Assembly (NCBI GenBank): GCA_026770025.1
Contig: JAMXDE010000018.1
Span: 1-64,000 of the forward strand
Length of the DNA stretch: 64,000 nt
Source: Craspedostauros australis
Taxonomy: Eukaryota > Bacillariophyta > Bacillariophyceae > Mastogloiales > Achnanthaceae
Direction of reading: 5' to 3'
Position numbers and translations under genes: made by a program. Of this stretch, positions 1-32,404 are shown one piece after another. The notes under the pieces were generated by a model, which was not told where the DNA came from, ran no database searches, and saw nothing but the letters and a program-made list of their open reading frames with translations. Each line of letters starts with the position of its first letter. Position 1 is the first letter of the stretch.

Positions 1-2754
1 TTCGTAGCAGATCATCGAAAGCTCGACGCGCACATTGTTGGCAGACGTCATGCTGCTCAACGAGTATCGAGCCAAGAGGCAGATCGGACCTGCATCCATG
101 TGCAGTCCTCTGCGCTCCTCATCACTCGTTTGCCTTCGTTGTAGTTGGCGTTGCCGTCTTCCTCTTCATTCTCGGATGAAAAGGGTTGTCTGTTGATCCA
201 CTCCATCGTGATCGTTCGTAGACCCGTAGTAGCTATACACTCCTGGAGTGTACTCAGCTATCTCCTCCCTGGTCCACTCATAGTCGTTGACTGGTGTTCC
301 GCTGTCGAAGTCGGAAACCCCATCATTGTTGATTGTTACGAGTGCCATGTTGTTCGTGATCGCGTTGTCGTCGCGCATCATCGTGTGGTTTCACATGGTC
401 ACATTTTGGTCGTTGTTCGCGATTTCGGTGATGGCCACGAATTTCGTGTTGGTCACAATTTTGATGCCGACCACATTTTCGTTGATGGGCATGGGCATCG
501 GCTCGTCGTTTGTGATGAGAGCGATGTCAACCATCCCGTCCATCCCGTCTGTCGCGACCTTGGCCGACCCGGCTTCCTTCATCTCACTATCGTGGGCATC
601 GCGGTTAGGACATCTGCTCCTGAACCGACCGATCCGTTGTTAGTGTCATCTTCCTCTCACTCTCTTACTGCCATTGCCTCGTGCGCACTTATAACCGTGT
701 TTGATACGGTGGCGGTCGTAGATGAGGCTCATGGCTCTGCGGGTGTCTGAAATCATTGTCTTCTCCGATGGCGAGGACACCTCTTGTTCCTCGTCTTTCG
801 TATTGACCCTGGGATCGAAGCGCAGAAGGACCTCCCGTCCAGCCTGTTCCAGCGCTTTCCCTTCTCGTCGAAGCACACACTTCCTGTGTTGCTGTTCTCG
901 TTGTTGTCGCCAATTCATGGCTGGTAGATTGCATTCTTGCCTCCTCGATCATCTCGCAGTAGGAATCGCAGCCAGCACTCGAGCATGTATCATTCGATGG
1001 CAGTCGGTGCCATGTGATCATCTCGGTGCTCTCCATTGCTGCTCCTCGCGTCACTCTTGATGTGATCGCGATCATGGGCCATGCCAATTCCTGCGTAGGT
1101 CTTGATCGTCCTTTACCTTATCATCCCTGCTTGCATGCTCATGCTCGATTGAGTCGCGCGCGCCATGCGCACAGACGTTCAGCATCAGCGATCTGTGTTG
1201 CTCCTCGTCCATCTCGGCTTCCATATTGACCGAGTGTTAATGAGGCAGCTCCATTCTTGCAGGGTAGGTTGGAAGTTCTCATTGCTTCCTCTATTGCATC
1301 TTGTTGAGCTCCTTCAGCTATCTCGCCCTCATGGCGCAGTCTGCTGAATCCGATGCATCCGAGAGCGTGGTCTGCTGCGTCCGATTCTCTTCTTGCGTAC
1401 AGCTCGCTCTCGTACTCCAACACAGCCGTGAAGGTCTCCATGCCTTCCTTGACTTCATGGTCCCATGACCATGGACAGTTCTTCCAATGCGCGTGTTCCG
1501 AGCGCCTCCTTGCTTCCAGCAATACAAGTAGTGTCTGTACTTGCCTCAGCTGCGGTCTCCACTCTGCTGGTGGACTCGCGGTGATGCTCGATTCGATCAT
1601 CATCATCGTCTTGATATCGTCATTCGTGTGAGGGTTGCCATGCCGATCTTGGCGTTCATTGGCAAGGAGCATCATGCTCCAGAGCGGCTTGCTCTCCTCT
1701 CTCTTCACACAGGGGACCATTACTCGCGATGTTCTTGAGTGTAGATGGTGGTCATGTTGATGATGGTGATGTTGGCTAGTGTTGGTGGTGGTGGAAACGT
1801 TGGATTTCAATCATAACGTTTCGAAACGTGTTGGAAATCCGGGGTACCCCAGTCTCTAGTTGTAGTCTCTGGTTACCTATTCCTGTTATTGCATTGTTGG
1901 AACTGTGAGTACAATATCATCACTTTCAATTCCATTTGCCAAAGCATACATAATCCACAGTAGCACACAGTCTTGCCCTTGCTCATGCAGTGCTGTCCTC
2001 CTGCTTCATCATGTCATGCAGCATGTACTCCATGTACATCTCATCTTGCAGTATTGGTTCATCTCATTATGCATCTCATCATGCATCTCAGATATCCCAT
2101 CTCCTGCCCTCTACCAATAGTTTCATTAGCGTAGACATCGCCGAGTCGTAGGCATCATACAGATCGGTTCATTCGATCAGATCACAATTTCCCACTCGTC
2201 ACAGGAGCACCTTGGTTGGGAGCTCATTCAGCTCCTCGACCATCAAACATCTCCGATCATCTCCGATCTTCTCCGATGCTTCTCCTGTCGTTTCTCCCAT
2301 TACTTCGCCGATCACTTCACCGGCTTCCTGGAAGTTCGTCATCACTGGTTCGTTCACAGGCCGTCTCACACTTCGTGACATTGGCCTTCCTCCAGTACTC
2401 TTTTTCATTGGTTGCGACATGGGGGCCGTAGTCGCTCGTATCGTGATGTTGGTCACGATTCCAACATCCCCGCCCCCTGCGACATACACGTGTGATTGGC
2501 ATTCCTGCATTGAGGTCACGGACACCATAGTCCGGTTCGCATTCGGCACGTGGCGTTCTCCACCACAAGTTACGTGCAGCTCACATTTTTCTGTGTCACA
2601 ATGATCAAACGTGGGAGTTGCGGTAATGTATCATTTCATGACATTCGACTCCTGACTTCTTGGGAGGTGCGGTAATGTAGCATTCCACAATGCTCAACTC
2701 CACACTCTTGGGAGGTGCGGCAATTCGGTGTTTCACAACACCCGATTCCTGACA
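1..2754 (-). mobile_element. Copia-type element unit D, cut by the window start
   Basis: The 5' part (minus strand) of a further unit: LTR tip at 2754, Gag-region ORF 1810-1139, and decayed sequence down to base 1. It carries the only base I saw differing between copies (1276). Confidence 0.85.
2611..2754 (-). repeat. LTR-tip hairpin repeats, copy in unit D
   Basis: Same block as at 8553-8696. The three stems lie at 2727-2742, 2679-2694 and 2629-2643. Confidence 0.8.
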
Positions 2755-2763
2755 CCCTTCCAA
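2755..2763 (-). other. Polypurine tract next to LTR tip (also at 8697-8705 and 14639-14647)
   Basis: On the minus strand TTGGAAGGG lies directly before the LTR start TGTCAGG. LTR elements use such a tract to prime plus-strand DNA synthesis next to the 3' LTR. Its presence before an LTR tip that also begins the next unit is the evidence that the units share a single LTR. Confidence 0.7.
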
Positions 2764-2825
2764 TTGCCGTTCCGACCATATCATCCACCTTGTTCAGTCC
2801 AATGCTGACCTGGGCTGAATGATGC

Positions 2826-3040
2826 TCCCCTTGTGCCGATCGTAGATCTCCTTTCTTGTAGTCTTCGTGAACCCGTCAGAGATGTTGTCCTCTGACTTCA
2901 CGAATCAAGCTCTCGCCTCCTTGTTCGCAATCAGTTCTCTGATGAAGTGATTGCACACGTCGATGTTTCTCGTCCTGGCTGATGTCGATGGGTTGGTAGC
3001 GATGAAGATCGCTCTCATGTTGTCAACCATCACATCCACA
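2826..3040 (-). pseudogene. Copia-type RNase H, C-terminal fragment (copies at +5942, +11884)
   Basis: Minus-strand reading gives VDNMRAIFIATNPSTSARTR, then NIDVCNHFIREL and FVKSEDNISDGFTK, matching the last third of copia RNase H. The first two thirds (the DSDYAG and SSSEAEY boxes) are absent: the RT tail ends near 3040 and the VDN box follows at once. One TGA interrupts the fragment near KEARA. The fragment ends shortly before the purine tract. Confidence 0.75.
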
Positions 3041-3870
3041 GGTCTCTCCATCCTCAATCCATATACTCGTGTCCGACACGAGCTTCGTCACTCTCAGCAT
3101 CTCCTCGTATGCTGTGGTCGTTGGCCCATCCAACACCTTCGTCAGTTCTCGGATGGCATTCGCGATGTCTGGTCTCGAATGCTTCACCAGGTATAGCAGC
3201 ACACCCACACCACTGTGGTATCTGCTGTGTCGATCCATATCGACCTTGGGTGCTTCGTTGTTCCTCTGGATCCCTTGGCCACTTATGCCAGGTGTTCCAT
3301 ATCTTTGAAGCTTTGTTGTTCTTCTTGAATGATGAGTGGCTGGTTCATCCAGCAGTTGGTCTTGCTCTCGTTGGATCCGATGTGGCAATTCAAGTAGTCT
3401 TCGAGACCATTCTCGATCCTGATTCCAAATCGCTCTCCCTTGATGTTCTTCACCGATTGCTTCAGCTCGCGTGTGCTTCCGATGCACAGGCGATCGTCGG
3501 CGTACGTCCTGATGAGGACGAGGCTCCCTTCCTGATTCCGGATTAGCAGACATGGATCCGCCTTGCTCTGCCAGAAGCCAAGCTTGGTCAATGTGTTCAC
3601 AAGCTCCTCATTTCATTGCCTCGCGCTCTGCACCGACCCATAGATGGTCTTCTTCAGCGGCAGGCATCCATCCGGTTCGTGTTCCTTTCTCTTGGGACAC
3701 TGCATGTAGATCTCTTCTCCTTGAAGACCCACTTCATCTTCACTCACTGCCGATCCCTCGGCATCTCGCTCATCTTGATCTTCTGCCAGACTCCTCGTCT
3801 GATCATTTCGTAGAACTCCTTGTTGATGGCCTCCTGCCATCTCTTTCACTTTGCTTCGCTGGATCCGCAT
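3023..3870 (-). pseudogene. Copia-type reverse transcriptase, broken (copies at 8965-9812, 14907-15754)
   Basis: Recognisable pieces in order: WQEAINKEF and VKMKWVFKE, then EEIYMQCPKRKEHEP, PLKKTIYGSVQSARQ, NTLTKLGFWQSKADPCLL, the catalytic box YADD (family usual YVDD) in LIRTYADDRLCIGS, YLNCHIG, and GVGVLLYLVKHSRPDIANA. The 60-70 residues normally between WVFK and EEIYM, which include the first catalytic Asp region, are missing. A TGA follows SARQ, and there is a further frameshift near 3290. The identity of the family is clear and the enzyme is dead. Confidence 0.85.
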
Positions 3871-3906
3871 GGTCCCAGCATTCTTTGGATGTGGTGGGGT
3901 CCAGCA

Positions 3907-5197
3907 TCATAGCCGTGTATGCATGCTTGGACGTCTCATTCCCTCTCTCGTGGTTGCTGGGGTCTTCTCTGCTTCCTCAGCTGACTCACCACCTCCACTG
4001 CTTGAATCTGAGTCGGACTGGTGTTCTGGCGCGTTGTTGTGCGGTGCCAAGCCGCGTATCGTCCGTGGCATCCTCGCCACTGGTCTCATGGGAGAGTACT
4101 CAAGGTCCTCGCTTTCAGCGATTGCCTCCGGGTCACTCGTACTTCGTCCCTTCCGATCATCAGGATCCACATGATCCTGGCACTCCTCAGGCGCTCATAG
4201 ACTCGGCATCATTCCAGTGTTGATGTGCACAAATCTCTCTTGCCGTCGCGTTCGCTCTCAACATCCTGACTTGCAGCGATGAAGTCGATCACTCTCATCC
4301 TCCATTGGATAGCATCGATCCTCATGCCTGCGACGTCCTTGTTGATGATTGACCCGTCTTGTTCGAAGTTGGGTCCGTCTGTTGCCACTGGAGCAGTCTT
4401 CGTCTCCTGTGCAGTTGCGCAGCCATCGTCATCTCCTGATTCTGATGCTTCGTTCGTCACCCTTGTTGGGTATTGGTACATTGTGGTCAGCTGCCAGCTC
4501 TGTTGTCGTGTTGCCTTGCAACCGCGTTGTCGATCGCCTTCATCCTCTTCTGGATAGCATCGATTCATCATGCTGCAGCTTCTTCGTCGTGGGAGTTGTT
4601 GGTGGCCTCCTACCATTCATCCTCCATTCATCTGAGGTTCCTCCCTTCCGGCTCTGTCATTCGATTCTTCATCCGACATGCCGCGTCTCTCTCATTGCTC
4701 GTCTATCGATGCGTCTTGACTCACTGTATCTGGAATCCGCCGTTCATGGCTCGCACTCTCATAGTTGTATCCTTTCCAGATTCGAGTCTCTCTCTCATCG
4801 ATCTCATTCTCATCGCACATCGATCTCATATCTGTGCTCGTAGTATCTCGCCGATCATTCGGCATCCGGTTCTTCTAGATCATCAGCCATGCTCATGTCA
4901 TGGCTATATCACTGAACCGTACTGCCATGGCCTCCTGCCATTCATTGCTCTTCTTGGGATCCACATGACCCCTTCATTCGTCAATTGTGGTTGGATCCAG
5001 AATAATTGCGACATTTGGTTGCTCGGATCCCTCTCTTCGTTCTGTATGTAGTTCAATGCTTGGTTCGCAGTGATGAAGTCACCCAGGCTCATCTTCTCAT
5101 GAGTGGTGTCAATCGTCATGCCTGCGATATCTCTGTTGAATGTTGACCCTTCTGTGTGAATGTTGGGTCCTCCTGTTGCCGGTAGTGTGGTAGTCAT
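3907..5197 (-). pseudogene. Pre-RT segment, internally duplicated, copia-type unit
   Basis: Two stretches with the pattern GPN...G(S)...N.D.AGM.ID....DFI.A.Q occur about 790 bases apart (frames at 4904-5197 and 4209-4616). Boxes resembling the copia RT entry motif WQEA occur near 4935 and 3830 and, more weakly, near 4605. An intact element has one such box before the reverse transcriptase, so this segment appears to have been duplicated inside the element before decay. It contains several stops. Confidence 0.5.
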
Positions 5198-5906
5198 CGT
5201 CGAGTGGCCTCATACCCCTCATCGTTCTCTGATTCTGATTCTCCACCTGATCCGAGTTCTCGCTCTTCCTTCGGATGGGTGTATTGTTGCATCCCTCGAG
5301 AGCACTCAGCATCCTCGGCATGTGCACGACAGGTTCTGCGATTGGGACTGTGTTTGGTGCGTCCTCGACCAGATCGTCTCGTCCCGTCTCATCGTCCCTT
5401 CTGGATTCATCGTCGTCATCATCGTACGATTCATTGTCCCCTTGGGTAGGGAGCAAGTCATCTTGCCCTCGAGCAGCGTCTTCTGTATCTGTATCGTCTC
5501 CGGCTCTTCTGCTCTGATCAGCGTCGTTGGTCTCCATGCTTCGGATGGTATCCGCACGTCGCTCCCAAGTCACTCTTCTATCTGGGGTACTCATCCCTGT
5601 AGTAGAGTCGTCATCTCCCAGGTCTGTCAGTACTGACCTGCTGGCATTCTCAATACGCTCGAATTGCCCACATGACGTATCCATCCATGTCACGTTCATC
5701 GTGATTAGGATCCTGGTCATCACCAGGTTCACTCGTGCGGTCCATACCGCTTGCATGCGACTTCTGTATCCAATCAGCATCTGTTGGATTGGAGTGAGGT
5801 TGCTGTTCTCCAGCATGTCATTGATTGTGTACACATTGCGAGCCACGTCGAGTGCGCTCCGCACGCCAATCTCATGCATCATGTAGTGCAACCTGCATGG
5901 GTGCAC
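5109..5906 (-). pseudogene. Integrase tail and acidic linker of the copia-type unit (other copies at +5942, +11884)
   Basis: A 265-codon frame. Residues about 70-90 contain ILITMNVTWMDTSCGQF, which matches the stretch after the integrase core in copia polyproteins (a 'DVTWxxxxYG' box). It is followed by about 150 residues very rich in Asp, Glu, Arg and Ser (for example ESYDDDDDESRRDDETGRDD), as in the linker between integrase and reverse transcriptase. The integrase core itself is not recognisable. Confidence 0.55.
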
Positions 5907-5942
5907 TCATCTGCACAGTCGACTCTCGAATTCGTCGATCGC

Positions 5943-7029
5943 TTCGTAGCAGATCATCGAAAGCTCGACGCGCACATTGTTGGCAGACGTCATGCTGCTC
6001 AACGAGTATCGAGCCAAGAGGCAGATCGGACCTGCATCCATGTGCAGTCCTCTGCGCTCCTCATCACTCGTTTGCCTTCGTTGTAGTTGGCGTTGCCGTC
6101 TTCCTCTTCATTCTCGGATGAAAAGGGTTGTCTGTTGATCCACTCCATCGTGATCGTTCGTAGACCCGTAGTAGCTATACACTCCTGGAGTGTACTCAGC
6201 TATCTCCTCCCTGGTCCACTCATAGTCGTTGACTGGTGTTCCGCTGTCGAAGTCGGAAACCCCATCATTGTTGATTGTTACGAGTGCCATGTTGTTCGTG
6301 ATCGCGTTGTCGTCGCGCATCATCGTGTGGTTTCACATGGTCACATTTTGGTCGTTGTTCGCGATTTCGGTGATGGCCACGAATTTCGTGTTGGTCACAA
6401 TTTTGATGCCGACCACATTTTCGTTGATGGGCATGGGCATCGGCTCGTCGTTTGTGATGAGAGCGATGTCAACCATCCCGTCCATCCCGTCTGTCGCGAC
6501 CTTGGCCGACCCGGCTTCCTTCATCTCACTATCGTGGGCATCGCGGTTAGGACATCTGCTCCTGAACCGACCGATCCGTTGTTAGTGTCATCTTCCTCTC
6601 ACTCTCTTACTGCCATTGCCTCGTGCGCACTTATAACCGTGTTTGATACGGTGGCGGTCGTAGATGAGGCTCATGGCTCTGCGGGTGTCTGAAATCATTG
6701 TCTTCTCCGATGGCGAGGACACCTCTTGTTCCTCGTCTTTCGTATTGACCCTGGGATCGAAGCGCAGAAGGACCTCCCGTCCAGCCTGTTCCAGCGCTTT
6801 CCCTTCTCGTCGAAGCACACACTTCCTGTGTTGCTGTTCTCGTTGTTGTCGCCAATTCATGGCTGGTAGATTGCATTCTTGCCTCCTCGATCATCTCGCA
6901 GTAGGAATCGCAGCCAGCACTCGAGCATGTATCATTCGATGGCAGTCGGTGCCATGTGATCATCTCGGTGCTCTCCATTGCTGCTCCTCGCGTCACTCTT
7001 GATGTGATCGCGATCATGGGCCATGCCAA
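5943..7029 (-). pseudogene. Decayed Gag-protease-integrase stretch of the copia-type unit
   Basis: Only short minus-strand frames remain (90 and 132 codons at 6588-7029, 63 and 71 codons at 6108-6524). A phrase DIALITNDEPMPMP and another with DFDSGTP resemble the region before the protease of related elements, but I cannot place an intact DSG protease site or the integrase HHCC and DDE residues. The same stretch recurs every 5942 bases. Confidence 0.3.
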
Positions 7030-7080
7030 TTCCTGCGTAGGTCTTGATCGTCCTTTACCTTATCATCCCTGCTTGCATGC

Positions 7081-7752
7081 TCATGCTCGATTGAGTCGCG
7101 CGCGCCATGCGCACAGACGTTCAGCATCAGCGATCTGTGTTGCTCCTCGTCCATCTCGGCTTCCATATTGACCGAGTGTTAATGAGGCAGCTCCATTCTT
7201 GCAGGGTAGGTTGGAAGCTCTCATTGCTTCCTCTATTGCATCTTGTTGAGCTCCTTCAGCTATCTCGCCCTCATGGCGCAGTCTGCTGAATCCGATGCAT
7301 CCGAGAGCGTGGTCTGCTGCGTCCGATTCTCTTCTTGCGTACAGCTCGCTCTCGTACTCCAACACAGCCGTGAAGGTCTCCATGCCTTCCTTGACTTCAT
7401 GGTCCCATGACCATGGACAGTTCTTCCAATGCGCGTGTTCCGAGCGCCTCCTTGCTTCCAGCAATACAAGTAGTGTCTGTACTTGCCTCAGCTGCGGTCT
7501 CCACTCTGCTGGTGGACTCGCGGTGATGCTCGATTCGATCATCATCATCGTCTTGATATCGTCATTCGTGTGAGGGTTGCCATGCCGATCTTGGCGTTCA
7601 TTGGCAAGGAGCATCATGCTCCAGAGCGGCTTGCTCTCCTCTCTCTTCACACAGGGGACCATTACTCGCGATGTTCTTGAGTGTAGATGGTGGTCATGTT
7701 GATGATGGTGATGTTGGCTAGTGTTGGTGGTGGTGGAAACGTTGGATTTCAA
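7081..7752 (-). pseudogene. Gag-region ORF of the copia-type unit (copies at 1139-1810, 13023-13694, 18965-19636)
   Basis: An open frame of 223 codons, the longest in the 5' third of the unit, where copia elements carry Gag. It begins with a His-rich stretch and continues with a charged, probably helical region (for example KEGMETFTAVLEYESELYARR). I see no certain CCHC zinc knuckle, so the Gag assignment rests on position alone. The copy at 1139-1810 has Thr where the others have Ala near the end. It could be a chance frame. Confidence 0.4.
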
Positions 7753-8552
7753 TCATAACGTTTCGAAACGTGTTGGAAATCCGGGGTACCCCAGTCTCTA
7801 GTTGTAGTCTCTGGTTACCTATTCCTGTTATTGCATTGTTGGAACTGTGAGTACAATATCATCACTTTCAATTCCATTTGCCAAAGCATACATAATCCAC
7901 AGTAGCACACAGTCTTGCCCTTGCTCATGCAGTGCTGTCCTCCTGCTTCATCATGTCATGCAGCATGTACTCCATGTACATCTCATCTTGCAGTATTGGT
8001 TCATCTCATTATGCATCTCATCATGCATCTCAGATATCCCATCTCCTGCCCTCTACCAATAGTTTCATTAGCGTAGACATCGCCGAGTCGTAGGCATCAT
8101 ACAGATCGGTTCATTCGATCAGATCACAATTTCCCACTCGTCACAGGAGCACCTTGGTTGGGAGCTCATTCAGCTCCTCGACCATCAAACATCTCCGATC
8201 ATCTCCGATCTTCTCCGATGCTTCTCCTGTCGTTTCTCCCATTACTTCGCCGATCACTTCACCGGCTTCCTGGAAGTTCGTCATCACTGGTTCGTTCACA
8301 GGCCGTCTCACACTTCGTGACATTGGCCTTCCTCCAGTACTCTTTTTCATTGGTTGCGACATGGGGGCCGTAGTCGCTCGTATCGTGATGTTGGTCACGA
8401 TTCCAACATCCCCGCCCCCTGCGACATACACGTGTGATTGGCATTCCTGCATTGAGGTCACGGACACCATAGTCCGGTTCGCATTCGGCACGTGGCGTTC
8501 TCCACCACAAGTTACGTGCAGCTCACATTTTTCTGTGTCACAATGATCAAAC

Positions 8553-8696
8553 GTGGGAGTTGCGGTAATGTATCATTTCATGACATTCGACTCCTGACTT
8601 CTTGGGAGGTGCGGTAATGTAGCATTCCACAATGCTCAACTCCACACTCTTGGGAGGTGCGGCAATTCGGTGTTTCACAACACCCGATTCCTGACA
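8553..8696 (-). repeat. Three 48-49 bp hairpin repeats at the LTR tip (unit C)
   Basis: Reading the minus strand from 8696, three tandem repeats of 48, 49 and about 46 bp each contain a GGAG-like box (GGAA in the first), a short hairpin, the string ACCGCA or GCCGCA, and a closing CTCC box. The hairpin stems are GGTGTT/AACACC (loop GTGA), AGCATT/AATGCT (loop GTGG) and TGTCAT/ATGATA (loop GAA). The stem bases differ between repeats but still pair. The one wobble in the third stem pairs only in the minus-strand (element-sense) RNA. The same block occurs at 2611-2754, 14495-14638 and 20437-20580. Confidence 0.8.
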
Positions 8697-11600
8697 CCCT
8701 TCCAATTGCCGTTCCGACCATATCATCCACCTTGTTCAGTCCAATGCTGACCTGGGCTGAATGATGCTCCCCTTGTGCCGATCGTAGATCTCCTTTCTTG
8801 TAGTCTTCGTGAACCCGTCAGAGATGTTGTCCTCTGACTTCACGAATCAAGCTCTCGCCTCCTTGTTCGCAATCAGTTCTCTGATGAAGTGATTGCACAC
8901 GTCGATGTTTCTCGTCCTGGCTGATGTCGATGGGTTGGTAGCGATGAAGATCGCTCTCATGTTGTCAACCATCACATCCACAGGTCTCTCCATCCTCAAT
9001 CCATATACTCGTGTCCGACACGAGCTTCGTCACTCTCAGCATCTCCTCGTATGCTGTGGTCGTTGGCCCATCCAACACCTTCGTCAGTTCTCGGATGGCA
9101 TTCGCGATGTCTGGTCTCGAATGCTTCACCAGGTATAGCAGCACACCCACACCACTGTGGTATCTGCTGTGTCGATCCATATCGACCTTGGGTGCTTCGT
9201 TGTTCCTCTGGATCCCTTGGCCACTTATGCCAGGTGTTCCATATCTTTGAAGCTTTGTTGTTCTTCTTGAATGATGAGTGGCTGGTTCATCCAGCAGTTG
9301 GTCTTGCTCTCGTTGGATCCGATGTGGCAATTCAAGTAGTCTTCGAGACCATTCTCGATCCTGATTCCAAATCGCTCTCCCTTGATGTTCTTCACCGATT
9401 GCTTCAGCTCGCGTGTGCTTCCGATGCACAGGCGATCGTCGGCGTACGTCCTGATGAGGACGAGGCTCCCTTCCTGATTCCGGATTAGCAGACATGGATC
9501 CGCCTTGCTCTGCCAGAAGCCAAGCTTGGTCAATGTGTTCACAAGCTCCTCATTTCATTGCCTCGCGCTCTGCACCGACCCATAGATGGTCTTCTTCAGC
9601 GGCAGGCATCCATCCGGTTCGTGTTCCTTTCTCTTGGGACACTGCATGTAGATCTCTTCTCCTTGAAGACCCACTTCATCTTCACTCACTGCCGATCCCT
9701 CGGCATCTCGCTCATCTTGATCTTCTGCCAGACTCCTCGTCTGATCATTTCGTAGAACTCCTTGTTGATGGCCTCCTGCCATCTCTTTCACTTTGCTTCG
9801 CTGGATCCGCATGGTCCCAGCATTCTTTGGATGTGGTGGGGTCCAGCATCATAGCCGTGTATGCATGCTTGGACGTCTCATTCCCTCTCTCGTGGTTGCT
9901 GGGGTCTTCTCTGCTTCCTCAGCTGACTCACCACCTCCACTGCTTGAATCTGAGTCGGACTGGTGTTCTGGCGCGTTGTTGTGCGGTGCCAAGCCGCGTA
10001 TCGTCCGTGGCATCCTCGCCACTGGTCTCATGGGAGAGTACTCAAGGTCCTCGCTTTCAGCGATTGCCTCCGGGTCACTCGTACTTCGTCCCTTCCGATC
10101 ATCAGGATCCACATGATCCTGGCACTCCTCAGGCGCTCATAGACTCGGCATCATTCCAGTGTTGATGTGCACAAATCTCTCTTGCCGTCGCGTTCGCTCT
10201 CAACATCCTGACTTGCAGCGATGAAGTCGATCACTCTCATCCTCCATTGGATAGCATCGATCCTCATGCCTGCGACGTCCTTGTTGATGATTGACCCGTC
10301 TTGTTCGAAGTTGGGTCCGTCTGTTGCCACTGGAGCAGTCTTCGTCTCCTGTGCAGTTGCGCAGCCATCGTCATCTCCTGATTCTGATGCTTCGTTCGTC
10401 ACCCTTGTTGGGTATTGGTACATTGTGGTCAGCTGCCAGCTCTGTTGTCGTGTTGCCTTGCAACCGCGTTGTCGATCGCCTTCATCCTCTTCTGGATAGC
10501 ATCGATTCATCATGCTGCAGCTTCTTCGTCGTGGGAGTTGTTGGTGGCCTCCTACCATTCATCCTCCATTCATCTGAGGTTCCTCCCTTCCGGCTCTGTC
10601 ATTCGATTCTTCATCCGACATGCCGCGTCTCTCTCATTGCTCGTCTATCGATGCGTCTTGACTCACTGTATCTGGAATCCGCCGTTCATGGCTCGCACTC
10701 TCATAGTTGTATCCTTTCCAGATTCGAGTCTCTCTCTCATCGATCTCATTCTCATCGCACATCGATCTCATATCTGTGCTCGTAGTATCTCGCCGATCAT
10801 TCGGCATCCGGTTCTTCTAGATCATCAGCCATGCTCATGTCATGGCTATATCACTGAACCGTACTGCCATGGCCTCCTGCCATTCATTGCTCTTCTTGGG
10901 ATCCACATGACCCCTTCATTCGTCAATTGTGGTTGGATCCAGAATAATTGCGACATTTGGTTGCTCGGATCCCTCTCTTCGTTCTGTATGTAGTTCAATG
11001 CTTGGTTCGCAGTGATGAAGTCACCCAGGCTCATCTTCTCATGAGTGGTGTCAATCGTCATGCCTGCGATATCTCTGTTGAATGTTGACCCTTCTGTGTG
11101 AATGTTGGGTCCTCCTGTTGCCGGTAGTGTGGTAGTCATCGTCGAGTGGCCTCATACCCCTCATCGTTCTCTGATTCTGATTCTCCACCTGATCCGAGTT
11201 CTCGCTCTTCCTTCGGATGGGTGTATTGTTGCATCCCTCGAGAGCACTCAGCATCCTCGGCATGTGCACGACAGGTTCTGCGATTGGGACTGTGTTTGGT
11301 GCGTCCTCGACCAGATCGTCTCGTCCCGTCTCATCGTCCCTTCTGGATTCATCGTCGTCATCATCGTACGATTCATTGTCCCCTTGGGTAGGGAGCAAGT
11401 CATCTTGCCCTCGAGCAGCGTCTTCTGTATCTGTATCGTCTCCGGCTCTTCTGCTCTGATCAGCGTCGTTGGTCTCCATGCTTCGGATGGTATCCGCACG
11501 TCGCTCCCAAGTCACTCTTCTATCTGGGGTACTCATCCCTGTAGTAGAGTCGTCATCTCCCAGGTCTGTCAGTACTGACCTGCTGGCATTCTCAATACGC

Positions 11601-14600
11601 TCGAATTGCCCACATGACGTATCCATCCATGTCACGTTCATCGTGATTAGGATCCTGGTCATCACCAGGTTCACTCGTGCGGTCCATACCGCTTGCATGC
11701 GACTTCTGTATCCAATCAGCATCTGTTGGATTGGAGTGAGGTTGCTGTTCTCCAGCATGTCATTGATTGTGTACACATTGCGAGCCACGTCGAGTGCGCT
11801 CCGCACGCCAATCTCATGCATCATGTAGTGCAACCTGCATGGGTGCACTCATCTGCACAGTCGACTCTCGAATTCGTCGATCGCTTCGTAGCAGATCATC
11901 GAAAGCTCGACGCGCACATTGTTGGCAGACGTCATGCTGCTCAACGAGTATCGAGCCAAGAGGCAGATCGGACCTGCATCCATGTGCAGTCCTCTGCGCT
12001 CCTCATCACTCGTTTGCCTTCGTTGTAGTTGGCGTTGCCGTCTTCCTCTTCATTCTCGGATGAAAAGGGTTGTCTGTTGATCCACTCCATCGTGATCGTT
12101 CGTAGACCCGTAGTAGCTATACACTCCTGGAGTGTACTCAGCTATCTCCTCCCTGGTCCACTCATAGTCGTTGACTGGTGTTCCGCTGTCGAAGTCGGAA
12201 ACCCCATCATTGTTGATTGTTACGAGTGCCATGTTGTTCGTGATCGCGTTGTCGTCGCGCATCATCGTGTGGTTTCACATGGTCACATTTTGGTCGTTGT
12301 TCGCGATTTCGGTGATGGCCACGAATTTCGTGTTGGTCACAATTTTGATGCCGACCACATTTTCGTTGATGGGCATGGGCATCGGCTCGTCGTTTGTGAT
12401 GAGAGCGATGTCAACCATCCCGTCCATCCCGTCTGTCGCGACCTTGGCCGACCCGGCTTCCTTCATCTCACTATCGTGGGCATCGCGGTTAGGACATCTG
12501 CTCCTGAACCGACCGATCCGTTGTTAGTGTCATCTTCCTCTCACTCTCTTACTGCCATTGCCTCGTGCGCACTTATAACCGTGTTTGATACGGTGGCGGT
12601 CGTAGATGAGGCTCATGGCTCTGCGGGTGTCTGAAATCATTGTCTTCTCCGATGGCGAGGACACCTCTTGTTCCTCGTCTTTCGTATTGACCCTGGGATC
12701 GAAGCGCAGAAGGACCTCCCGTCCAGCCTGTTCCAGCGCTTTCCCTTCTCGTCGAAGCACACACTTCCTGTGTTGCTGTTCTCGTTGTTGTCGCCAATTC
12801 ATGGCTGGTAGATTGCATTCTTGCCTCCTCGATCATCTCGCAGTAGGAATCGCAGCCAGCACTCGAGCATGTATCATTCGATGGCAGTCGGTGCCATGTG
12901 ATCATCTCGGTGCTCTCCATTGCTGCTCCTCGCGTCACTCTTGATGTGATCGCGATCATGGGCCATGCCAATTCCTGCGTAGGTCTTGATCGTCCTTTAC
13001 CTTATCATCCCTGCTTGCATGCTCATGCTCGATTGAGTCGCGCGCGCCATGCGCACAGACGTTCAGCATCAGCGATCTGTGTTGCTCCTCGTCCATCTCG
13101 GCTTCCATATTGACCGAGTGTTAATGAGGCAGCTCCATTCTTGCAGGGTAGGTTGGAAGCTCTCATTGCTTCCTCTATTGCATCTTGTTGAGCTCCTTCA
13201 GCTATCTCGCCCTCATGGCGCAGTCTGCTGAATCCGATGCATCCGAGAGCGTGGTCTGCTGCGTCCGATTCTCTTCTTGCGTACAGCTCGCTCTCGTACT
13301 CCAACACAGCCGTGAAGGTCTCCATGCCTTCCTTGACTTCATGGTCCCATGACCATGGACAGTTCTTCCAATGCGCGTGTTCCGAGCGCCTCCTTGCTTC
13401 CAGCAATACAAGTAGTGTCTGTACTTGCCTCAGCTGCGGTCTCCACTCTGCTGGTGGACTCGCGGTGATGCTCGATTCGATCATCATCATCGTCTTGATA
13501 TCGTCATTCGTGTGAGGGTTGCCATGCCGATCTTGGCGTTCATTGGCAAGGAGCATCATGCTCCAGAGCGGCTTGCTCTCCTCTCTCTTCACACAGGGGA
13601 CCATTACTCGCGATGTTCTTGAGTGTAGATGGTGGTCATGTTGATGATGGTGATGTTGGCTAGTGTTGGTGGTGGTGGAAACGTTGGATTTCAATCATAA
13701 CGTTTCGAAACGTGTTGGAAATCCGGGGTACCCCAGTCTCTAGTTGTAGTCTCTGGTTACCTATTCCTGTTATTGCATTGTTGGAACTGTGAGTACAATA
13801 TCATCACTTTCAATTCCATTTGCCAAAGCATACATAATCCACAGTAGCACACAGTCTTGCCCTTGCTCATGCAGTGCTGTCCTCCTGCTTCATCATGTCA
13901 TGCAGCATGTACTCCATGTACATCTCATCTTGCAGTATTGGTTCATCTCATTATGCATCTCATCATGCATCTCAGATATCCCATCTCCTGCCCTCTACCA
14001 ATAGTTTCATTAGCGTAGACATCGCCGAGTCGTAGGCATCATACAGATCGGTTCATTCGATCAGATCACAATTTCCCACTCGTCACAGGAGCACCTTGGT
14101 TGGGAGCTCATTCAGCTCCTCGACCATCAAACATCTCCGATCATCTCCGATCTTCTCCGATGCTTCTCCTGTCGTTTCTCCCATTACTTCGCCGATCACT
14201 TCACCGGCTTCCTGGAAGTTCGTCATCACTGGTTCGTTCACAGGCCGTCTCACACTTCGTGACATTGGCCTTCCTCCAGTACTCTTTTTCATTGGTTGCG
14301 ACATGGGGGCCGTAGTCGCTCGTATCGTGATGTTGGTCACGATTCCAACATCCCCGCCCCCTGCGACATACACGTGTGATTGGCATTCCTGCATTGAGGT
14401 CACGGACACCATAGTCCGGTTCGCATTCGGCACGTGGCGTTCTCCACCACAAGTTACGTGCAGCTCACATTTTTCTGTGTCACAATGATCAAACGTGGGA
14501 GTTGCGGTAATGTATCATTTCATGACATTCGACTCCTGACTTCTTGGGAGGTGCGGTAATGTAGCATTCCACAATGCTCAACTCCACACTCTTGGGAGGT

Positions 14601-14638
14601 GCGGCAATTCGGTGTTTCACAACACCCGATTCCTGACA
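8697..14638 (-). mobile_element. Copia-type element unit B (second full unit)
   Basis: Identical in reading frames to the flanking units. On the minus strand it runs from the LTR tip at 14638 to the purine tract at 8697-8705. Internal parts lie at the positions given for the unit at 2755-8696 plus 5942. Confidence 0.85.
14495..14638 (-). repeat. LTR-tip hairpin repeats, copy in unit B
   Basis: Same block as at 8553-8696, shifted by 5942. Confidence 0.8.
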
Positions 14639-17600
14639 CCCTTCCAATTGCCGTTCCGACCATATCATCCACCTTGTTCAGTCCAATGCTGACCTGGGCT
14701 GAATGATGCTCCCCTTGTGCCGATCGTAGATCTCCTTTCTTGTAGTCTTCGTGAACCCGTCAGAGATGTTGTCCTCTGACTTCACGAATCAAGCTCTCGC
14801 CTCCTTGTTCGCAATCAGTTCTCTGATGAAGTGATTGCACACGTCGATGTTTCTCGTCCTGGCTGATGTCGATGGGTTGGTAGCGATGAAGATCGCTCTC
14901 ATGTTGTCAACCATCACATCCACAGGTCTCTCCATCCTCAATCCATATACTCGTGTCCGACACGAGCTTCGTCACTCTCAGCATCTCCTCGTATGCTGTG
15001 GTCGTTGGCCCATCCAACACCTTCGTCAGTTCTCGGATGGCATTCGCGATGTCTGGTCTCGAATGCTTCACCAGGTATAGCAGCACACCCACACCACTGT
15101 GGTATCTGCTGTGTCGATCCATATCGACCTTGGGTGCTTCGTTGTTCCTCTGGATCCCTTGGCCACTTATGCCAGGTGTTCCATATCTTTGAAGCTTTGT
15201 TGTTCTTCTTGAATGATGAGTGGCTGGTTCATCCAGCAGTTGGTCTTGCTCTCGTTGGATCCGATGTGGCAATTCAAGTAGTCTTCGAGACCATTCTCGA
15301 TCCTGATTCCAAATCGCTCTCCCTTGATGTTCTTCACCGATTGCTTCAGCTCGCGTGTGCTTCCGATGCACAGGCGATCGTCGGCGTACGTCCTGATGAG
15401 GACGAGGCTCCCTTCCTGATTCCGGATTAGCAGACATGGATCCGCCTTGCTCTGCCAGAAGCCAAGCTTGGTCAATGTGTTCACAAGCTCCTCATTTCAT
15501 TGCCTCGCGCTCTGCACCGACCCATAGATGGTCTTCTTCAGCGGCAGGCATCCATCCGGTTCGTGTTCCTTTCTCTTGGGACACTGCATGTAGATCTCTT
15601 CTCCTTGAAGACCCACTTCATCTTCACTCACTGCCGATCCCTCGGCATCTCGCTCATCTTGATCTTCTGCCAGACTCCTCGTCTGATCATTTCGTAGAAC
15701 TCCTTGTTGATGGCCTCCTGCCATCTCTTTCACTTTGCTTCGCTGGATCCGCATGGTCCCAGCATTCTTTGGATGTGGTGGGGTCCAGCATCATAGCCGT
15801 GTATGCATGCTTGGACGTCTCATTCCCTCTCTCGTGGTTGCTGGGGTCTTCTCTGCTTCCTCAGCTGACTCACCACCTCCACTGCTTGAATCTGAGTCGG
15901 ACTGGTGTTCTGGCGCGTTGTTGTGCGGTGCCAAGCCGCGTATCGTCCGTGGCATCCTCGCCACTGGTCTCATGGGAGAGTACTCAAGGTCCTCGCTTTC
16001 AGCGATTGCCTCCGGGTCACTCGTACTTCGTCCCTTCCGATCATCAGGATCCACATGATCCTGGCACTCCTCAGGCGCTCATAGACTCGGCATCATTCCA
16101 GTGTTGATGTGCACAAATCTCTCTTGCCGTCGCGTTCGCTCTCAACATCCTGACTTGCAGCGATGAAGTCGATCACTCTCATCCTCCATTGGATAGCATC
16201 GATCCTCATGCCTGCGACGTCCTTGTTGATGATTGACCCGTCTTGTTCGAAGTTGGGTCCGTCTGTTGCCACTGGAGCAGTCTTCGTCTCCTGTGCAGTT
16301 GCGCAGCCATCGTCATCTCCTGATTCTGATGCTTCGTTCGTCACCCTTGTTGGGTATTGGTACATTGTGGTCAGCTGCCAGCTCTGTTGTCGTGTTGCCT
16401 TGCAACCGCGTTGTCGATCGCCTTCATCCTCTTCTGGATAGCATCGATTCATCATGCTGCAGCTTCTTCGTCGTGGGAGTTGTTGGTGGCCTCCTACCAT
16501 TCATCCTCCATTCATCTGAGGTTCCTCCCTTCCGGCTCTGTCATTCGATTCTTCATCCGACATGCCGCGTCTCTCTCATTGCTCGTCTATCGATGCGTCT
16601 TGACTCACTGTATCTGGAATCCGCCGTTCATGGCTCGCACTCTCATAGTTGTATCCTTTCCAGATTCGAGTCTCTCTCTCATCGATCTCATTCTCATCGC
16701 ACATCGATCTCATATCTGTGCTCGTAGTATCTCGCCGATCATTCGGCATCCGGTTCTTCTAGATCATCAGCCATGCTCATGTCATGGCTATATCACTGAA
16801 CCGTACTGCCATGGCCTCCTGCCATTCATTGCTCTTCTTGGGATCCACATGACCCCTTCATTCGTCAATTGTGGTTGGATCCAGAATAATTGCGACATTT
16901 GGTTGCTCGGATCCCTCTCTTCGTTCTGTATGTAGTTCAATGCTTGGTTCGCAGTGATGAAGTCACCCAGGCTCATCTTCTCATGAGTGGTGTCAATCGT
17001 CATGCCTGCGATATCTCTGTTGAATGTTGACCCTTCTGTGTGAATGTTGGGTCCTCCTGTTGCCGGTAGTGTGGTAGTCATCGTCGAGTGGCCTCATACC
17101 CCTCATCGTTCTCTGATTCTGATTCTCCACCTGATCCGAGTTCTCGCTCTTCCTTCGGATGGGTGTATTGTTGCATCCCTCGAGAGCACTCAGCATCCTC
17201 GGCATGTGCACGACAGGTTCTGCGATTGGGACTGTGTTTGGTGCGTCCTCGACCAGATCGTCTCGTCCCGTCTCATCGTCCCTTCTGGATTCATCGTCGT
17301 CATCATCGTACGATTCATTGTCCCCTTGGGTAGGGAGCAAGTCATCTTGCCCTCGAGCAGCGTCTTCTGTATCTGTATCGTCTCCGGCTCTTCTGCTCTG
17401 ATCAGCGTCGTTGGTCTCCATGCTTCGGATGGTATCCGCACGTCGCTCCCAAGTCACTCTTCTATCTGGGGTACTCATCCCTGTAGTAGAGTCGTCATCT
17501 CCCAGGTCTGTCAGTACTGACCTGCTGGCATTCTCAATACGCTCGAATTGCCCACATGACGTATCCATCCATGTCACGTTCATCGTGATTAGGATCCTGG

Positions 17601-20580
17601 TCATCACCAGGTTCACTCGTGCGGTCCATACCGCTTGCATGCGACTTCTGTATCCAATCAGCATCTGTTGGATTGGAGTGAGGTTGCTGTTCTCCAGCAT
17701 GTCATTGATTGTGTACACATTGCGAGCCACGTCGAGTGCGCTCCGCACGCCAATCTCATGCATCATGTAGTGCAACCTGCATGGGTGCACTCATCTGCAC
17801 AGTCGACTCTCGAATTCGTCGATCGCTTCGTAGCAGATCATCGAAAGCTCGACGCGCACATTGTTGGCAGACGTCATGCTGCTCAACGAGTATCGAGCCA
17901 AGAGGCAGATCGGACCTGCATCCATGTGCAGTCCTCTGCGCTCCTCATCACTCGTTTGCCTTCGTTGTAGTTGGCGTTGCCGTCTTCCTCTTCATTCTCG
18001 GATGAAAAGGGTTGTCTGTTGATCCACTCCATCGTGATCGTTCGTAGACCCGTAGTAGCTATACACTCCTGGAGTGTACTCAGCTATCTCCTCCCTGGTC
18101 CACTCATAGTCGTTGACTGGTGTTCCGCTGTCGAAGTCGGAAACCCCATCATTGTTGATTGTTACGAGTGCCATGTTGTTCGTGATCGCGTTGTCGTCGC
18201 GCATCATCGTGTGGTTTCACATGGTCACATTTTGGTCGTTGTTCGCGATTTCGGTGATGGCCACGAATTTCGTGTTGGTCACAATTTTGATGCCGACCAC
18301 ATTTTCGTTGATGGGCATGGGCATCGGCTCGTCGTTTGTGATGAGAGCGATGTCAACCATCCCGTCCATCCCGTCTGTCGCGACCTTGGCCGACCCGGCT
18401 TCCTTCATCTCACTATCGTGGGCATCGCGGTTAGGACATCTGCTCCTGAACCGACCGATCCGTTGTTAGTGTCATCTTCCTCTCACTCTCTTACTGCCAT
18501 TGCCTCGTGCGCACTTATAACCGTGTTTGATACGGTGGCGGTCGTAGATGAGGCTCATGGCTCTGCGGGTGTCTGAAATCATTGTCTTCTCCGATGGCGA
18601 GGACACCTCTTGTTCCTCGTCTTTCGTATTGACCCTGGGATCGAAGCGCAGAAGGACCTCCCGTCCAGCCTGTTCCAGCGCTTTCCCTTCTCGTCGAAGC
18701 ACACACTTCCTGTGTTGCTGTTCTCGTTGTTGTCGCCAATTCATGGCTGGTAGATTGCATTCTTGCCTCCTCGATCATCTCGCAGTAGGAATCGCAGCCA
18801 GCACTCGAGCATGTATCATTCGATGGCAGTCGGTGCCATGTGATCATCTCGGTGCTCTCCATTGCTGCTCCTCGCGTCACTCTTGATGTGATCGCGATCA
18901 TGGGCCATGCCAATTCCTGCGTAGGTCTTGATCGTCCTTTACCTTATCATCCCTGCTTGCATGCTCATGCTCGATTGAGTCGCGCGCGCCATGCGCACAG
19001 ACGTTCAGCATCAGCGATCTGTGTTGCTCCTCGTCCATCTCGGCTTCCATATTGACCGAGTGTTAATGAGGCAGCTCCATTCTTGCAGGGTAGGTTGGAA
19101 GCTCTCATTGCTTCCTCTATTGCATCTTGTTGAGCTCCTTCAGCTATCTCGCCCTCATGGCGCAGTCTGCTGAATCCGATGCATCCGAGAGCGTGGTCTG
19201 CTGCGTCCGATTCTCTTCTTGCGTACAGCTCGCTCTCGTACTCCAACACAGCCGTGAAGGTCTCCATGCCTTCCTTGACTTCATGGTCCCATGACCATGG
19301 ACAGTTCTTCCAATGCGCGTGTTCCGAGCGCCTCCTTGCTTCCAGCAATACAAGTAGTGTCTGTACTTGCCTCAGCTGCGGTCTCCACTCTGCTGGTGGA
19401 CTCGCGGTGATGCTCGATTCGATCATCATCATCGTCTTGATATCGTCATTCGTGTGAGGGTTGCCATGCCGATCTTGGCGTTCATTGGCAAGGAGCATCA
19501 TGCTCCAGAGCGGCTTGCTCTCCTCTCTCTTCACACAGGGGACCATTACTCGCGATGTTCTTGAGTGTAGATGGTGGTCATGTTGATGATGGTGATGTTG
19601 GCTAGTGTTGGTGGTGGTGGAAACGTTGGATTTCAATCATAACGTTTCGAAACGTGTTGGAAATCCGGGGTACCCCAGTCTCTAGTTGTAGTCTCTGGTT
19701 ACCTATTCCTGTTATTGCATTGTTGGAACTGTGAGTACAATATCATCACTTTCAATTCCATTTGCCAAAGCATACATAATCCACAGTAGCACACAGTCTT
19801 GCCCTTGCTCATGCAGTGCTGTCCTCCTGCTTCATCATGTCATGCAGCATGTACTCCATGTACATCTCATCTTGCAGTATTGGTTCATCTCATTATGCAT
19901 CTCATCATGCATCTCAGATATCCCATCTCCTGCCCTCTACCAATAGTTTCATTAGCGTAGACATCGCCGAGTCGTAGGCATCATACAGATCGGTTCATTC
20001 GATCAGATCACAATTTCCCACTCGTCACAGGAGCACCTTGGTTGGGAGCTCATTCAGCTCCTCGACCATCAAACATCTCCGATCATCTCCGATCTTCTCC
20101 GATGCTTCTCCTGTCGTTTCTCCCATTACTTCGCCGATCACTTCACCGGCTTCCTGGAAGTTCGTCATCACTGGTTCGTTCACAGGCCGTCTCACACTTC
20201 GTGACATTGGCCTTCCTCCAGTACTCTTTTTCATTGGTTGCGACATGGGGGCCGTAGTCGCTCGTATCGTGATGTTGGTCACGATTCCAACATCCCCGCC
20301 CCCTGCGACATACACGTGTGATTGGCATTCCTGCATTGAGGTCACGGACACCATAGTCCGGTTCGCATTCGGCACGTGGCGTTCTCCACCACAAGTTACG
20401 TGCAGCTCACATTTTTCTGTGTCACAATGATCAAACGTGGGAGTTGCGGTAATGTATCATTTCATGACATTCGACTCCTGACTTCTTGGGAGGTGCGGTA
20501 ATGTAGCATTCCACAATGCTCAACTCCACACTCTTGGGAGGTGCGGCAATTCGGTGTTTCACAACACCCGATTCCTGACA
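14639..20580 (-). mobile_element. Copia-type element unit A (first full unit, LTR tip at right edge of array)
   Basis: This unit starts on the minus strand at the LTR tip (base 20580, first bases TG) and runs down to the purine tract at 14639-14647, which abuts the next LTR tip at 14638. A 5-base target duplication would start at 20581 (ggggc), but its partner lies outside the window. The internal parts match the unit at 2755-8696 shifted by 11884 bases. The 3' end of the LTR could not be placed, because each unit has only one LTR to compare. Confidence 0.85.
20437..20580 (-). repeat. LTR-tip hairpin repeats, copy in unit A at the array edge
   Basis: Same block as at 8553-8696. Its end is the exact right boundary of the array, which supports reading base 20580 as the first base of the LTR. 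Confidence 0.82.
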
Positions 20581-20597
20581 GGGGCCAACTGATGGAT

Positions 20598-20816
20598 TCA
20601 CAGTGTGTCCTGCTTTGTTCTGGACAGGTGTGTGATGGATGAGCAGCATCTTGAGAGGAACCATTGTGACTGATCATCATCCAAGGAAACGCCCCCAAAG
20701 TTGCTGCCATCGTCGCCCCCACCACCCTGCATGTCCCCATCATTGAAGTTGTTGCCGCTGATGTCCATGTTGATGTCAGCATTGCTGGAGCCATTCAATG
20801 GACCAAAGAAGCCCAT
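20598..20816 (-). pseudogene. Gly/Asn/Asp-rich fragment of a broken minus-strand gene
   Basis: A 72-codon frame beginning MGFFGPLNGSSNADINMD and rich in Gly, Asn and Asp. It lies 18 bases from the edge of the retrotransposon array. I do not recognise a domain. Composition suggests the disordered tail of a host protein and may belong with the Ser-rich fragment at 21590-22162. It may also be a chance frame. Confidence 0.3.
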
Positions 20817-21589
20817 CTTGCTTTGCCCGATTCAACCTGAATAGAGTATGGTGTGCTGCAAGTGAGGAATGGTCAGCCGACGCTGTGCCAAAGGACCGAA
20901 TGGAGAATTTTGACAGGAAAGCAGGGTGGAGAACATGTTCCCAATTGACTTCAATCTCTCTTCGCTTCATCACCTCTGCGTTGTTGTTCATTGTTGTGTG
21001 TGGGTTCGTGGCATGGATCCGCACACCGTGGAGTGCTCAGTGTGGTGGACTGCTCAGCATCGTGGAGCATGGTGCCGTCTTCGGTGGAGTTCTCTCAGAG
21101 TCTCCATGTTGGTGAGCGTGGACGAAGGGATCGTGCCGACCTCCATCCACCCCAATCACACGATCTTTGTGATTTTTGGCACAAGACCGTGTTTTTGTAT
21201 CGTGGATGCCACTTCGCATCAGATTTCTCGATCGGCGAAATGACCCGAACAGTGAACTGAGAGCCATTTGCATTCTCGTTTCTGCTCAATCCAACTTCGC
21301 CGAATGAGTGTTTTGGACAACACACAACAAGGTGGGAAGAAAGTGCACAACTCGAACAAGATCAACAATCCAGTATTCCAACATCCAAAGCTAGGGAGGC
21401 TACATGTAGCCACCATACTCTGCTCTCCTTCAAAGGTGCTCAGCATCAATCGATATCGCTATCATCATCAGCTTAGTTATATAGGTTATGTTGTCTTGCA
21501 TGGAGCACTTCACTCCACTCTGCTTTACTTTGTCACCATGTCCGACTTCATGACCACCATCATCTCACTCTTCGTTGATCATGTGTGTT

Positions 21590-28171: not shown

Positions 28172-28457
28172 CTTGCCGTTTCTAGTACACTGTGGTATAG
28201 ATTGGCAGCTCTGGTCCTTGCCAGAATTCGTGGTTGTTGTTGGTCCACTATTTTAGTGGTGTAGTCCTCTTGATTCGTTCGTCTGTTCGTCGCTTGTAGT
28301 GAGGATGTGTATACAGCTTATCTGTTCACCCCTGTTGAGTGTGTGATTGTGCGCTGATGCTTGTCGTGTTTGTTGCTGTTTCGTGTTGTGGCTGTTGTTT
28401 CGCGTTTTCGCTTCTGTCTCATCCGGTCTCTTCTGTGTGTATATATGTGTTTTTTTT

Positions 28458-31540: not shown

Positions 31541-32404
31541 CTTCAGGGACGTTGCAGGTTCTCAACTACAAAAGCGTCTTCTGTTGTGGAGGGACCATTC
31601 ATGTTGTGGTTGGAAGTATCCGTGGATGTTGGTGCTCTCGTCTATCGATGGCTCATGGGACAACCACCGTGGCAGTATGAGTGATCGAATGCTGGAGTAT
31701 TGGCATATGGAAATGGGGATCATCCTATCCCTCCATCATCAGGAGCGCCGATGACTTGCTGGTCAAACCTGTTGGGAACATGATTGTTCAATCCACCGCC
31801 TTCATGCGTACTCGTAGTAGTACAACGCATCGCGCATTTCCCATGTGCGGTTCTCAGGCAATCATGTTGCCGATTGGACTCCTTGGGGGATATGCGTACA
31901 TCGTGACGTGCGATGGTTGCAATTGAGATTGTGATCATCTGGGTGTTCTCCCCATCGCATCATAGCTGTTGGCGTCATCATCACTTTCGTGGTTGTTTCG
32001 AGTTGACGATCAGAGATCTCATTTGAACGCCTTTCTGACATGTTCTTCTCATGAAAGAAGCTAATAAGTACTTCATTGACACACAGAATTCGTGGAATTG
32101 GGAACACATCTCTGCACGTGCAAAAGTGGTGAAGCGAGAATCGACGATTCCCATTTGTGGTGTTCTCGCGTTCGCAACAGCGATGTTGTGGGGGTGTGTC
32201 GTGTTCTGTTCCTTCTTCTCGTTGTTGTGTGCGCCAGTTCGCAGTCAGCAAAAGGAAGGATCCGCACTCTCCGGACAGCGCTGGTGCCCTCTCCCAAACC
32301 AGGGTGCGATCAAGAAGTAGACAAACAGAGAAACGAGGAGAACATTGAAACGAGGTAACCGCACACACCGCTCAACCCCACAATCGAGCACATCAACAAC
32401 AGAC
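31541..32404. other. Region without a firm gene upstream of the ankyrin gene
   Basis: It holds the short minus-strand frame at 31720-31938 and otherwise only chance frames. The promoter and 5' leader of the ankyrin-BTB gene must lie in its right part. I see no clear TATA box. Confidence 0.4.

What the first reader, a model, noticed from the sequence alone, without database searches (positions are those of the whole stretch)
1..20580. Shared-LTR tandem array of a dead copia element, units nearly identical
Three full 5942-bp units and a part follow each other head to tail. The purine tract of one abuts the LTR tip (TGTCAGG) that starts the next, so there is one LTR per unit. Every unit carries the same stops, shifts and deletions, yet only one base was seen to differ. 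Amplification must therefore post-date inactivation and did not need the element's own enzymes. Unequal exchange, or insertion of concatemers from one-LTR circles, would explain it. It may be turning into a macrosatellite.
Basis: partly seen in the sequence, partly recalled or inferred. Interest (0 to 1): 0.75.

Follow-up and report, generated by a model that had tools for sequence, protein, structure and literature searches.

The report
Tandem array of a dead retrotransposon
A recently inserted jumping gene that can no longer make its own enzymes has been copied several times in a row at one spot in an algal genome, very probably by recombination between its end repeats; such arrays are a known kind of structure, seen here in a long and clear form.

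Summary
In detail: 1-20580 is three full 5942-bp units plus 2754 bases of a fourth, minus strand, one 926-bp LTR per unit, one differing base. Position 1 is a contig end. The left edge lies at the end of contig C45: terminal LTR, two full units and a partial one, 103 bases short of C16's start in unit register. Both outer flanks carry GGGGCC, a 6-bp (not 5) duplication, and adjoin in empty paralogues. So one insertion holds at least 4, probably 6 or more units. Nine of nine family copies compared share two RT stops, yet LTRs within a copy differ by 0-1 base (7 of 7): a non-autonomous family moved in trans, perhaps by a relative sharing LTR ends, primer-site region and purine tract. Ten solo LTRs, a two-unit array of the same family and a three-unit array of another copia favour LTR-LTR unequal exchange. 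Shared-LTR tandems are published for plants. Verdict: real, largely explained, new member of a known kind; the unit number needs spanning reads.

The parts
1..2754 (-). Partial unit (unit coordinates 2754 to 1), cut by the contig end; its LTR is 1829-2754
2755..8696 (-). Full unit 5942 bp; LTR at 7771-8696
8697..14638 (-). Full unit 5942 bp, used as reference unit; LTR at 13713-14638
14639..20580 (-). Full unit 5942 bp; its LTR 19655-20580 is the outer 5' LTR of the array
20581..20586 (+). Target-site duplication GGGGCC, right copy; left copy is C45:495354-495359
   Evidence: empty sites
2755..2766 (-). Purine tract (CAATTGGAAGGG) abutting the LTR tip at 2754; same at 8697-8708 and 14639-14650
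   Evidence: repeated in register
7745..7770 (-). First internal bases after the LTR (CGTTTCGAAACGTTATGATTG...), presumed primer-binding region, nearly identical in a relative
   Evidence: the role is inferred
9228..9554 (-). Remnant of reverse transcriptase (weak RVT_2 match, E 0.013, below the family cut-off) with a YADD motif
9555..9557 (-). Stop in the RT region (unit 5082), in 9 of 9 copies compared
9849..9851 (-). Stop in the RT region (unit 4788), in 9 of 9 copies compared
1276..1276 (-). The single base that differs between units in the window (unit 1479); the variant is absent from both full units of C45

Best explanation
One copy of a non-autonomous copia family (926-bp LTRs, about 5.0 kb internal region with a broken, partly deleted pol) was inserted recently at a GGGGCC site inside another repeat, using enzymes supplied in trans, plausibly by a relative with the same LTR ends, primer-site region and purine tract. 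Misaligned exchange between its identical LTRs on sister chromatids or homologues (or an equivalent repair event) then added internal-plus-LTR units in place, giving LTR-(internal-LTR)n with one 6-bp duplication round the whole. n is at least 4 and probably 6 or more. Shown: architecture, single-insertion flanks, shared lesions, near-identical LTRs, solo LTRs in the same family, recurrence. Inferred: trans-mobilisation and its source, the exchange step itself, and n.
For: Units agree to 2 substitutions and 1 one-base gap in 33,389 bases outside the noisy C45 tail, while 7 dispersed copies are 94.9-96.8% identical to the unit, so the extra units came from this locus itself. GGGGCC flanks both outer ends, on two contigs, and paralogues hold the empty site: in C38 and C47 the left- and right-flank matches overlap by exactly 6 bases, and in C61, C32, C9, C34 and C3 they adjoin within a few bases (letters of C38). 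LTR-LTR recombination is frequent here: 10 of 20 single LTRs checked are solo LTRs with a perfect 6-bp duplication (4, 6 of 16). A second array of the family, C54, has LTR tips at 203581, 209458, 215335 and a CACATG duplication. Another, coding copia forms a three-unit array on C62. Trans-mobilisation: 7 of 7 two-LTR copies have 0-1 LTR difference, 6 of 7 a perfect 6-bp duplication and one 5 of 6, and none has a sense frame over 316 codons; a relative nested in C36 shares LTR ends, primer-site region and the end of the purine tract, and its sampled pol stretch is open, with Pol_BBD, SH3 and RVT_2 plus a sub-threshold rve match.
Against: No read, coverage or population data. The exchange step leaves no unique scar: a concatemeric insertion would look the same. 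The two contigs are not joined, and both end inside the array. The solo-LTR count rests on perfect-tip LTRs only, and 10 of the 20 were not solo. LTR identity could also reflect conversion rather than youth. The C36 relative is itself interrupted by another copia (13.9 kb between its LTR tips), so it is not shown to be a working helper, and no uninterrupted copy of it was examined.
Confidence: 0.7

Rival explanations
1. The array was inserted ready-made: a multi-unit cDNA made from a read-through transcript of a one-LTR circle or of an older tandem, or by template switching, was integrated once.
For: One 6-bp duplication round the whole; all units alike. PMC11899658 (Discussion) and PMC1950507 (abstract) propose such routes, and the rice paper says its tandems result from a single insertion (abstract).
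Against: A cDNA of four to six 5.9-kb units (25-37 kb, my arithmetic) would have to be packaged and copied; solo LTRs, the reciprocal product of exchange, are common here.
Confidence: 0.17
2. Integrase-independent recombination of cDNA into a resident element added the units, as reported for yeast (cited in PMC11899658, passage).
For: It gives the same shared-LTR form and needs no integrase.
Against: cDNA from the dispersed copies, which differ from the unit by about 3-5% overall, would be expected to leave mosaic units; the units are alike. Only cDNA from the locus itself would fit.
Confidence: 0.06
3. Assembly artefact: fewer units exist and the assembler multiplied them.
For: Both contigs end inside the array, the C45 tail is noisy (3 substitutions and 13 gap letters in 3084 bases), and no reads could be examined.
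Against: Each contig independently holds more than two units joined to its own flank, the two flanks share a 6-bp duplication and adjoin in paralogues; one base variant marks a unit.
Confidence: 0.05

Closest known systems
Tandem LTR-retrotransposon structures of rice and other plants (PMC11899658; abstract, passages and sections 10 and 13 read)
   Same: Alternating internal regions and shared LTRs, near-identical units, one target-site duplication round the whole; one rice case lies inside another transposon; unit number varies between haplotypes.
   Different: The rice case whose make-up I saw has two internal regions and three LTRs, and the 28 selected rice tandems all have coding domains; here at least 4 units of a non-coding copia, in an alga, with 6-bp duplications.
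Cassandra TRIM arrays (PMC7215508; passages read)
   Same: Non-autonomous LTR element in shared-LTR arrays of almost identical units; up to 13 LTRs amplified.
   Different: Cassandra is a TRIM with a very small internal domain and 5S sequences in its LTR; this unit is 5.9 kb with a decayed pol.
BARE1 shared-LTR structures in barley (cited in PMC7215508, passage)
   Same: Copia element; [quoted passage not shown] at least 4600 stated.
   Different: There attributed to recombination that can remove intervening sequence; here one insertion, by its duplication and empty sites.
Non-autonomous LTR elements moved in trans such as Dasheng (rice) and SNRE (soybean), named in PMC3701649 (passage)
   Same: Amplification thought to use enzymes of other elements.
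   Different: This family keeps a recognisable broken pol; its helper is only inferred.

Membership tests
Shared-LTR tandem LTR retrotransposon | Alternating LTR and internal regions, one LTR between internals, LTR at both outer ends | tested here: met
   outer LTRs on C16 and C45; the stretch between the two contig ends is not seen
Shared-LTR tandem LTR retrotransposon | One target-site duplication flanking the whole array | tested here: met
   GGGGCC on both outer flanks; empty sites
Copia (Pseudoviridae) LTR retrotransposon | Copia-type reverse transcriptase (RVT_2) | tested here: met
   In the array only weakly (E 0.013, below cut-off, 1 of 8 pieces); clear by relation to the C36 relative (RVT_2 E 3.9e-41; 64% identity in the RT stretch)
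Copia (Pseudoviridae) LTR retrotransposon | Integrase before RT in pol | tested here: inconclusive
   Relative: weak rve (E 0.0074, under cut-off) and SH3 domain before RT. Array unit: no match at E 0.001 to the relative's piece-2 residues 1-247, which hold that rve match
Non-autonomous family mobilised in trans | Members lack coding capacity yet inserted recently | tested here: met
   9 of 9 compared share two RT stops; 0-1 LTR differences in 7 of 7; duplications 6 of 7 perfect; family members not fetched were not tested
Non-autonomous family mobilised in trans | Proven use of a helper's proteins | not testable with these tools
   Shared ends, primer-site region and purine-tract end only
Macrosatellite | Long array, tens of units or more, varying in number between individuals (definition recalled) | not testable with these tools
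   4 to 6 or more units inferred; no population data

The most novel reading that the evidence does not exclude
The array is an early stage of satellite birth from a non-autonomous copia: a locus expanding in place far faster than it gains mutations, with a true unit number well above six hidden in the assembly gap and varying between strains.
Probability: 0.15. Interest if true: 0.55.

Novelty: new member of a known kind. Interest (0 to 1): 0.35.

Why it matters
It gives a clean, very young example of how one retrotransposon insertion becomes a tandem array, in an alga where solo LTRs, two-unit and longer arrays occur in one family, so the rates of exchange and the steps from element to satellite could be measured. 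It also explains a contig break and predicts which two contigs belong together.

Tried and rejected
Stop-to-stop pieces of the unit gave only a weak RVT_2 match (1 of 8 pieces); the class was settled through a relative instead. A non-standard genetic code (TGA read as Trp) was considered because one shared stop stands where copia RT usually has Trp (recalled); rejected because 144 of the 150 scored RVT_2 matches in this genome have no stop inside under the standard code (1493 candidates, 150 scored). Two adjacent full elements were rejected for the array: the spacing is 5942, while two separate head-to-tail elements on C6 are 6.85 kb apart with 6 bases between them. While checking the draft I asked whether the C36 relative is a two-unit tandem; the stretch at half the distance holds no LTR but what reads by eye as another copia's RT, so that copy is interrupted, not tandem. 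Rfam over the window gave 0 matches. Host naming failed: the rRNA query did not complete; 61 Chloroa_b-bind matches, one of which has algal light-harvesting chains, among them fucoxanthin chlorophyll a/c proteins, as its PDB matches, indicate an alga, no species. Single LTRs: one search lists 22 perfect-tip LTRs without a partner at element distance; two on C31, 13.4 kb apart, were left out as a possible split copy; of the 16, 10 showed no matching duplication (7 with no proper LTR end at the expected place, 3 running into internal sequence) and are not counted as solo. Searches for algal cases gave none in the listings (12 of 268 listed); this is not proof of absence.
Full report
WHAT IS THERE. 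The window is the first 64 kb of contig C16 of a 74.8-Mb, 90-contig eukaryote genome. Bases 1-20580 repeat with a period of 5942 and one mismatch, at 1276 against 7218. The element lies on the minus strand; LTR tips end at 2754, 8696, 14638 and 20580. The purine tract of a unit abuts the next LTR tip, so there is one LTR per unit.

THE LEFT EDGE. The same unit is found at the right end of contig C45. There the array starts with a terminal 926-bp LTR at C45:495360-496285, then two full units (the second one base shorter) and a partial unit up to the contig end at 511252. C45 stops at unit coordinate 2858 and C16 starts at 2754, which leaves 103 bases between; a coincidence within 103 either way has a chance of about 3.5%. 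The last 3084 bases of C45 hold 3 substitutions and 13 gap letters against the unit, as at a thinly covered contig end (inference). The variant base at window 1276 is in neither full unit of C45. If it is real, the contigs cannot overlap at that unit and n is at least 6; if it is an error, n is at least 4. With a 103-base gap n would be exactly 6, 36,578 bp (my arithmetic).

ONE INSERTION. Both outer flanks carry GGGGCC. Six bases is the rule in this family: 6 of 7 two-LTR copies match perfectly and one matches 5 of 6; the second C6 element, two copies split by nested insertions and the four single LTRs examined in the same call match perfectly. The target is itself repeated: besides itself, 600 bases of the right flank match seven other places over nearly full length at 71-86% identity, and shorter stretches elsewhere; the left flank matches the same seven contigs at 80-87%. 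In C38 and C47 the two flank matches overlap by exactly six bases, the empty site; in the other five they adjoin within a few bases. The C38 letters show one GGGGCC. This links C45 to C16 independently of the array.

THE FAMILY IS DEAD BUT YOUNG. In the RT region, two stops (unit 4788 and 5082) are in 9 of 9 copies compared; a third (5412) is in the array unit and none of the 8 others. Compared with the relative below, the unit has 14 matched stretches scattered over three frames, 7 of them with at least one stop; one part of pol is present more than once, and nothing matches the relative's residues that include its weak rve match. None of 7 two-LTR copies has a sense frame longer than 316 codons between stops. 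Yet the two LTRs of one copy differ by 0 or 1 base in 7 of 7 copies, and by 1 base between the outer LTRs of the array, while LTRs of different copies differ by 0.2 to 10%. So the inactive lineage is old and its present insertions look recent; it was probably moved in trans (inference). Conversion between the LTRs of a copy is an alternative reading of their identity.

A POSSIBLE HELPER. Nested in a family copy on C36 is a relative with two identical 790-bp LTRs and a GACCAT duplication. Its first 12 and last 17 LTR bases are those of the dead family, its first internal bases are nearly so and its purine tract ends alike, while most of its LTR does not align. The sampled 3' part of its body is one open frame of 1579 codons with Pol_BBD, SH3 and RVT_2 above cut-off and rve below it. 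Against it as the helper: its LTR tips are 13.9 kb apart and the middle holds what reads as another copia's RT, so this copy is itself interrupted; no uninterrupted copy was looked for. A second, partial relative with an open RVT_2 stretch lies in L038.

HOW THE ARRAY GREW. Outside the noisy tail, 33,389 array bases contain 2 substitutions and 1 one-base gap against the unit, whereas seven dispersed copies are 94.9-96.8% identical to it. The added units therefore came from this locus. LTR-LTR exchange is common here: of 20 single perfect-tip LTRs checked (of 22), 10 are solo LTRs with perfect duplications (L045, L046, L049, L050; 6 of 16). A solo LTR is the reciprocal product of the exchange that makes a shared-LTR tandem. 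The family has a second array, two units on C54 (period 5877, duplication CACATG). Among the 40 scored internal matches (of 64 candidates), six belong to this array, two to C54, and 32 are others with no tandem spacing; a lower bound. A different, coding copia has four copies of a 601-base stretch from the region between its frames at C62:218361, 224959, 238166 and 244764: three units with a 6598 period, the middle one interrupted by a nested antisense copy of the dead family. That this stretch is a single shared LTR is inferred from the lack of an internal repeat between two pol frames; the outer flanks of that array were not read. Recurrence in different copia families fits a general recombination process. 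A multi-unit cDNA insertion cannot be excluded.

AGE. With the Phaeodactylum base-substitution rate of 4.77e-10 per site per generation (PMC6604790, abstract), 2 substitutions in 33,389 bases give roughly 126,000 cell generations. The host's relation to that diatom is not known, so this is an order of magnitude only.

WHAT IS KNOWN. Shared-LTR tandems are reported as frequent and polymorphic in rice and present in Arabidopsis, almond and cotton (PMC11899658; abstract, passages, sections 10 and 13), as long arrays of the short Cassandra element (PMC7215508; passages), and a template-switching route is proposed (PMC1950507; abstract). The origin, exchange against complex insertion, is left open in PMC11899658. 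The present case is a member of this kind, with several large units and solo LTRs in the same family. The searches used (listings: 15 of 17 shown, 9 of 9, 10 of 10, 12 of 25, 12 of 268, 11 of 11, 6 of 538) showed no algal example; that does not establish that none is in print.

VERDICT. Real, mostly explained, of moderate interest.

Noticed in passing
G000:C6:2610688-2624447 (L034, L035): Two different copies of the family stand head to tail with a single TAGAGT between them, and the same TAGAGT at both outer ends: two insertions at exactly the same 6-bp site. LTR pairs are identical within each copy.
   Followed up: partly
G000:C62:218361-245364: Three-unit array of another, coding copia (period 6598); the middle unit is interrupted near the end of pol by an antisense copy of the dead family.
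   Followed up: partly
L034-L042 (seven copies) against the unit: Identity of dispersed copies to the unit varies from 89.4 to 99.8% along the element in 500-base bins, which may reflect recombination between copies; the bin at unit 1501-2000 is lowest in six of seven.
   Followed up: no
window 24467-30515 (-): A 1234-aa frame with an Exo_endo_phos domain lies downstream of a 685-aa frame without a Pfam match; no reverse transcriptase domain was found at E up to 1, so whether it is a LINE-like element is open.
   Followed up: no
window 32345-33751 (+): 468-aa frame made largely of ankyrin repeats.
   Followed up: no
G000:C7:936881/944024 and C57:197483/204631: RT matches in long copia frames (about 1,850-2,083 codons) spaced about 7.14 kb on one strand, possible further tandem pairs.
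   Followed up: no
flanks of the array (window 20581-21180; C45:494760-495359): The target is itself a dispersed repeat with seven near-full-length paralogues at 71-87% identity; its nature was not determined.
   Followed up: partly
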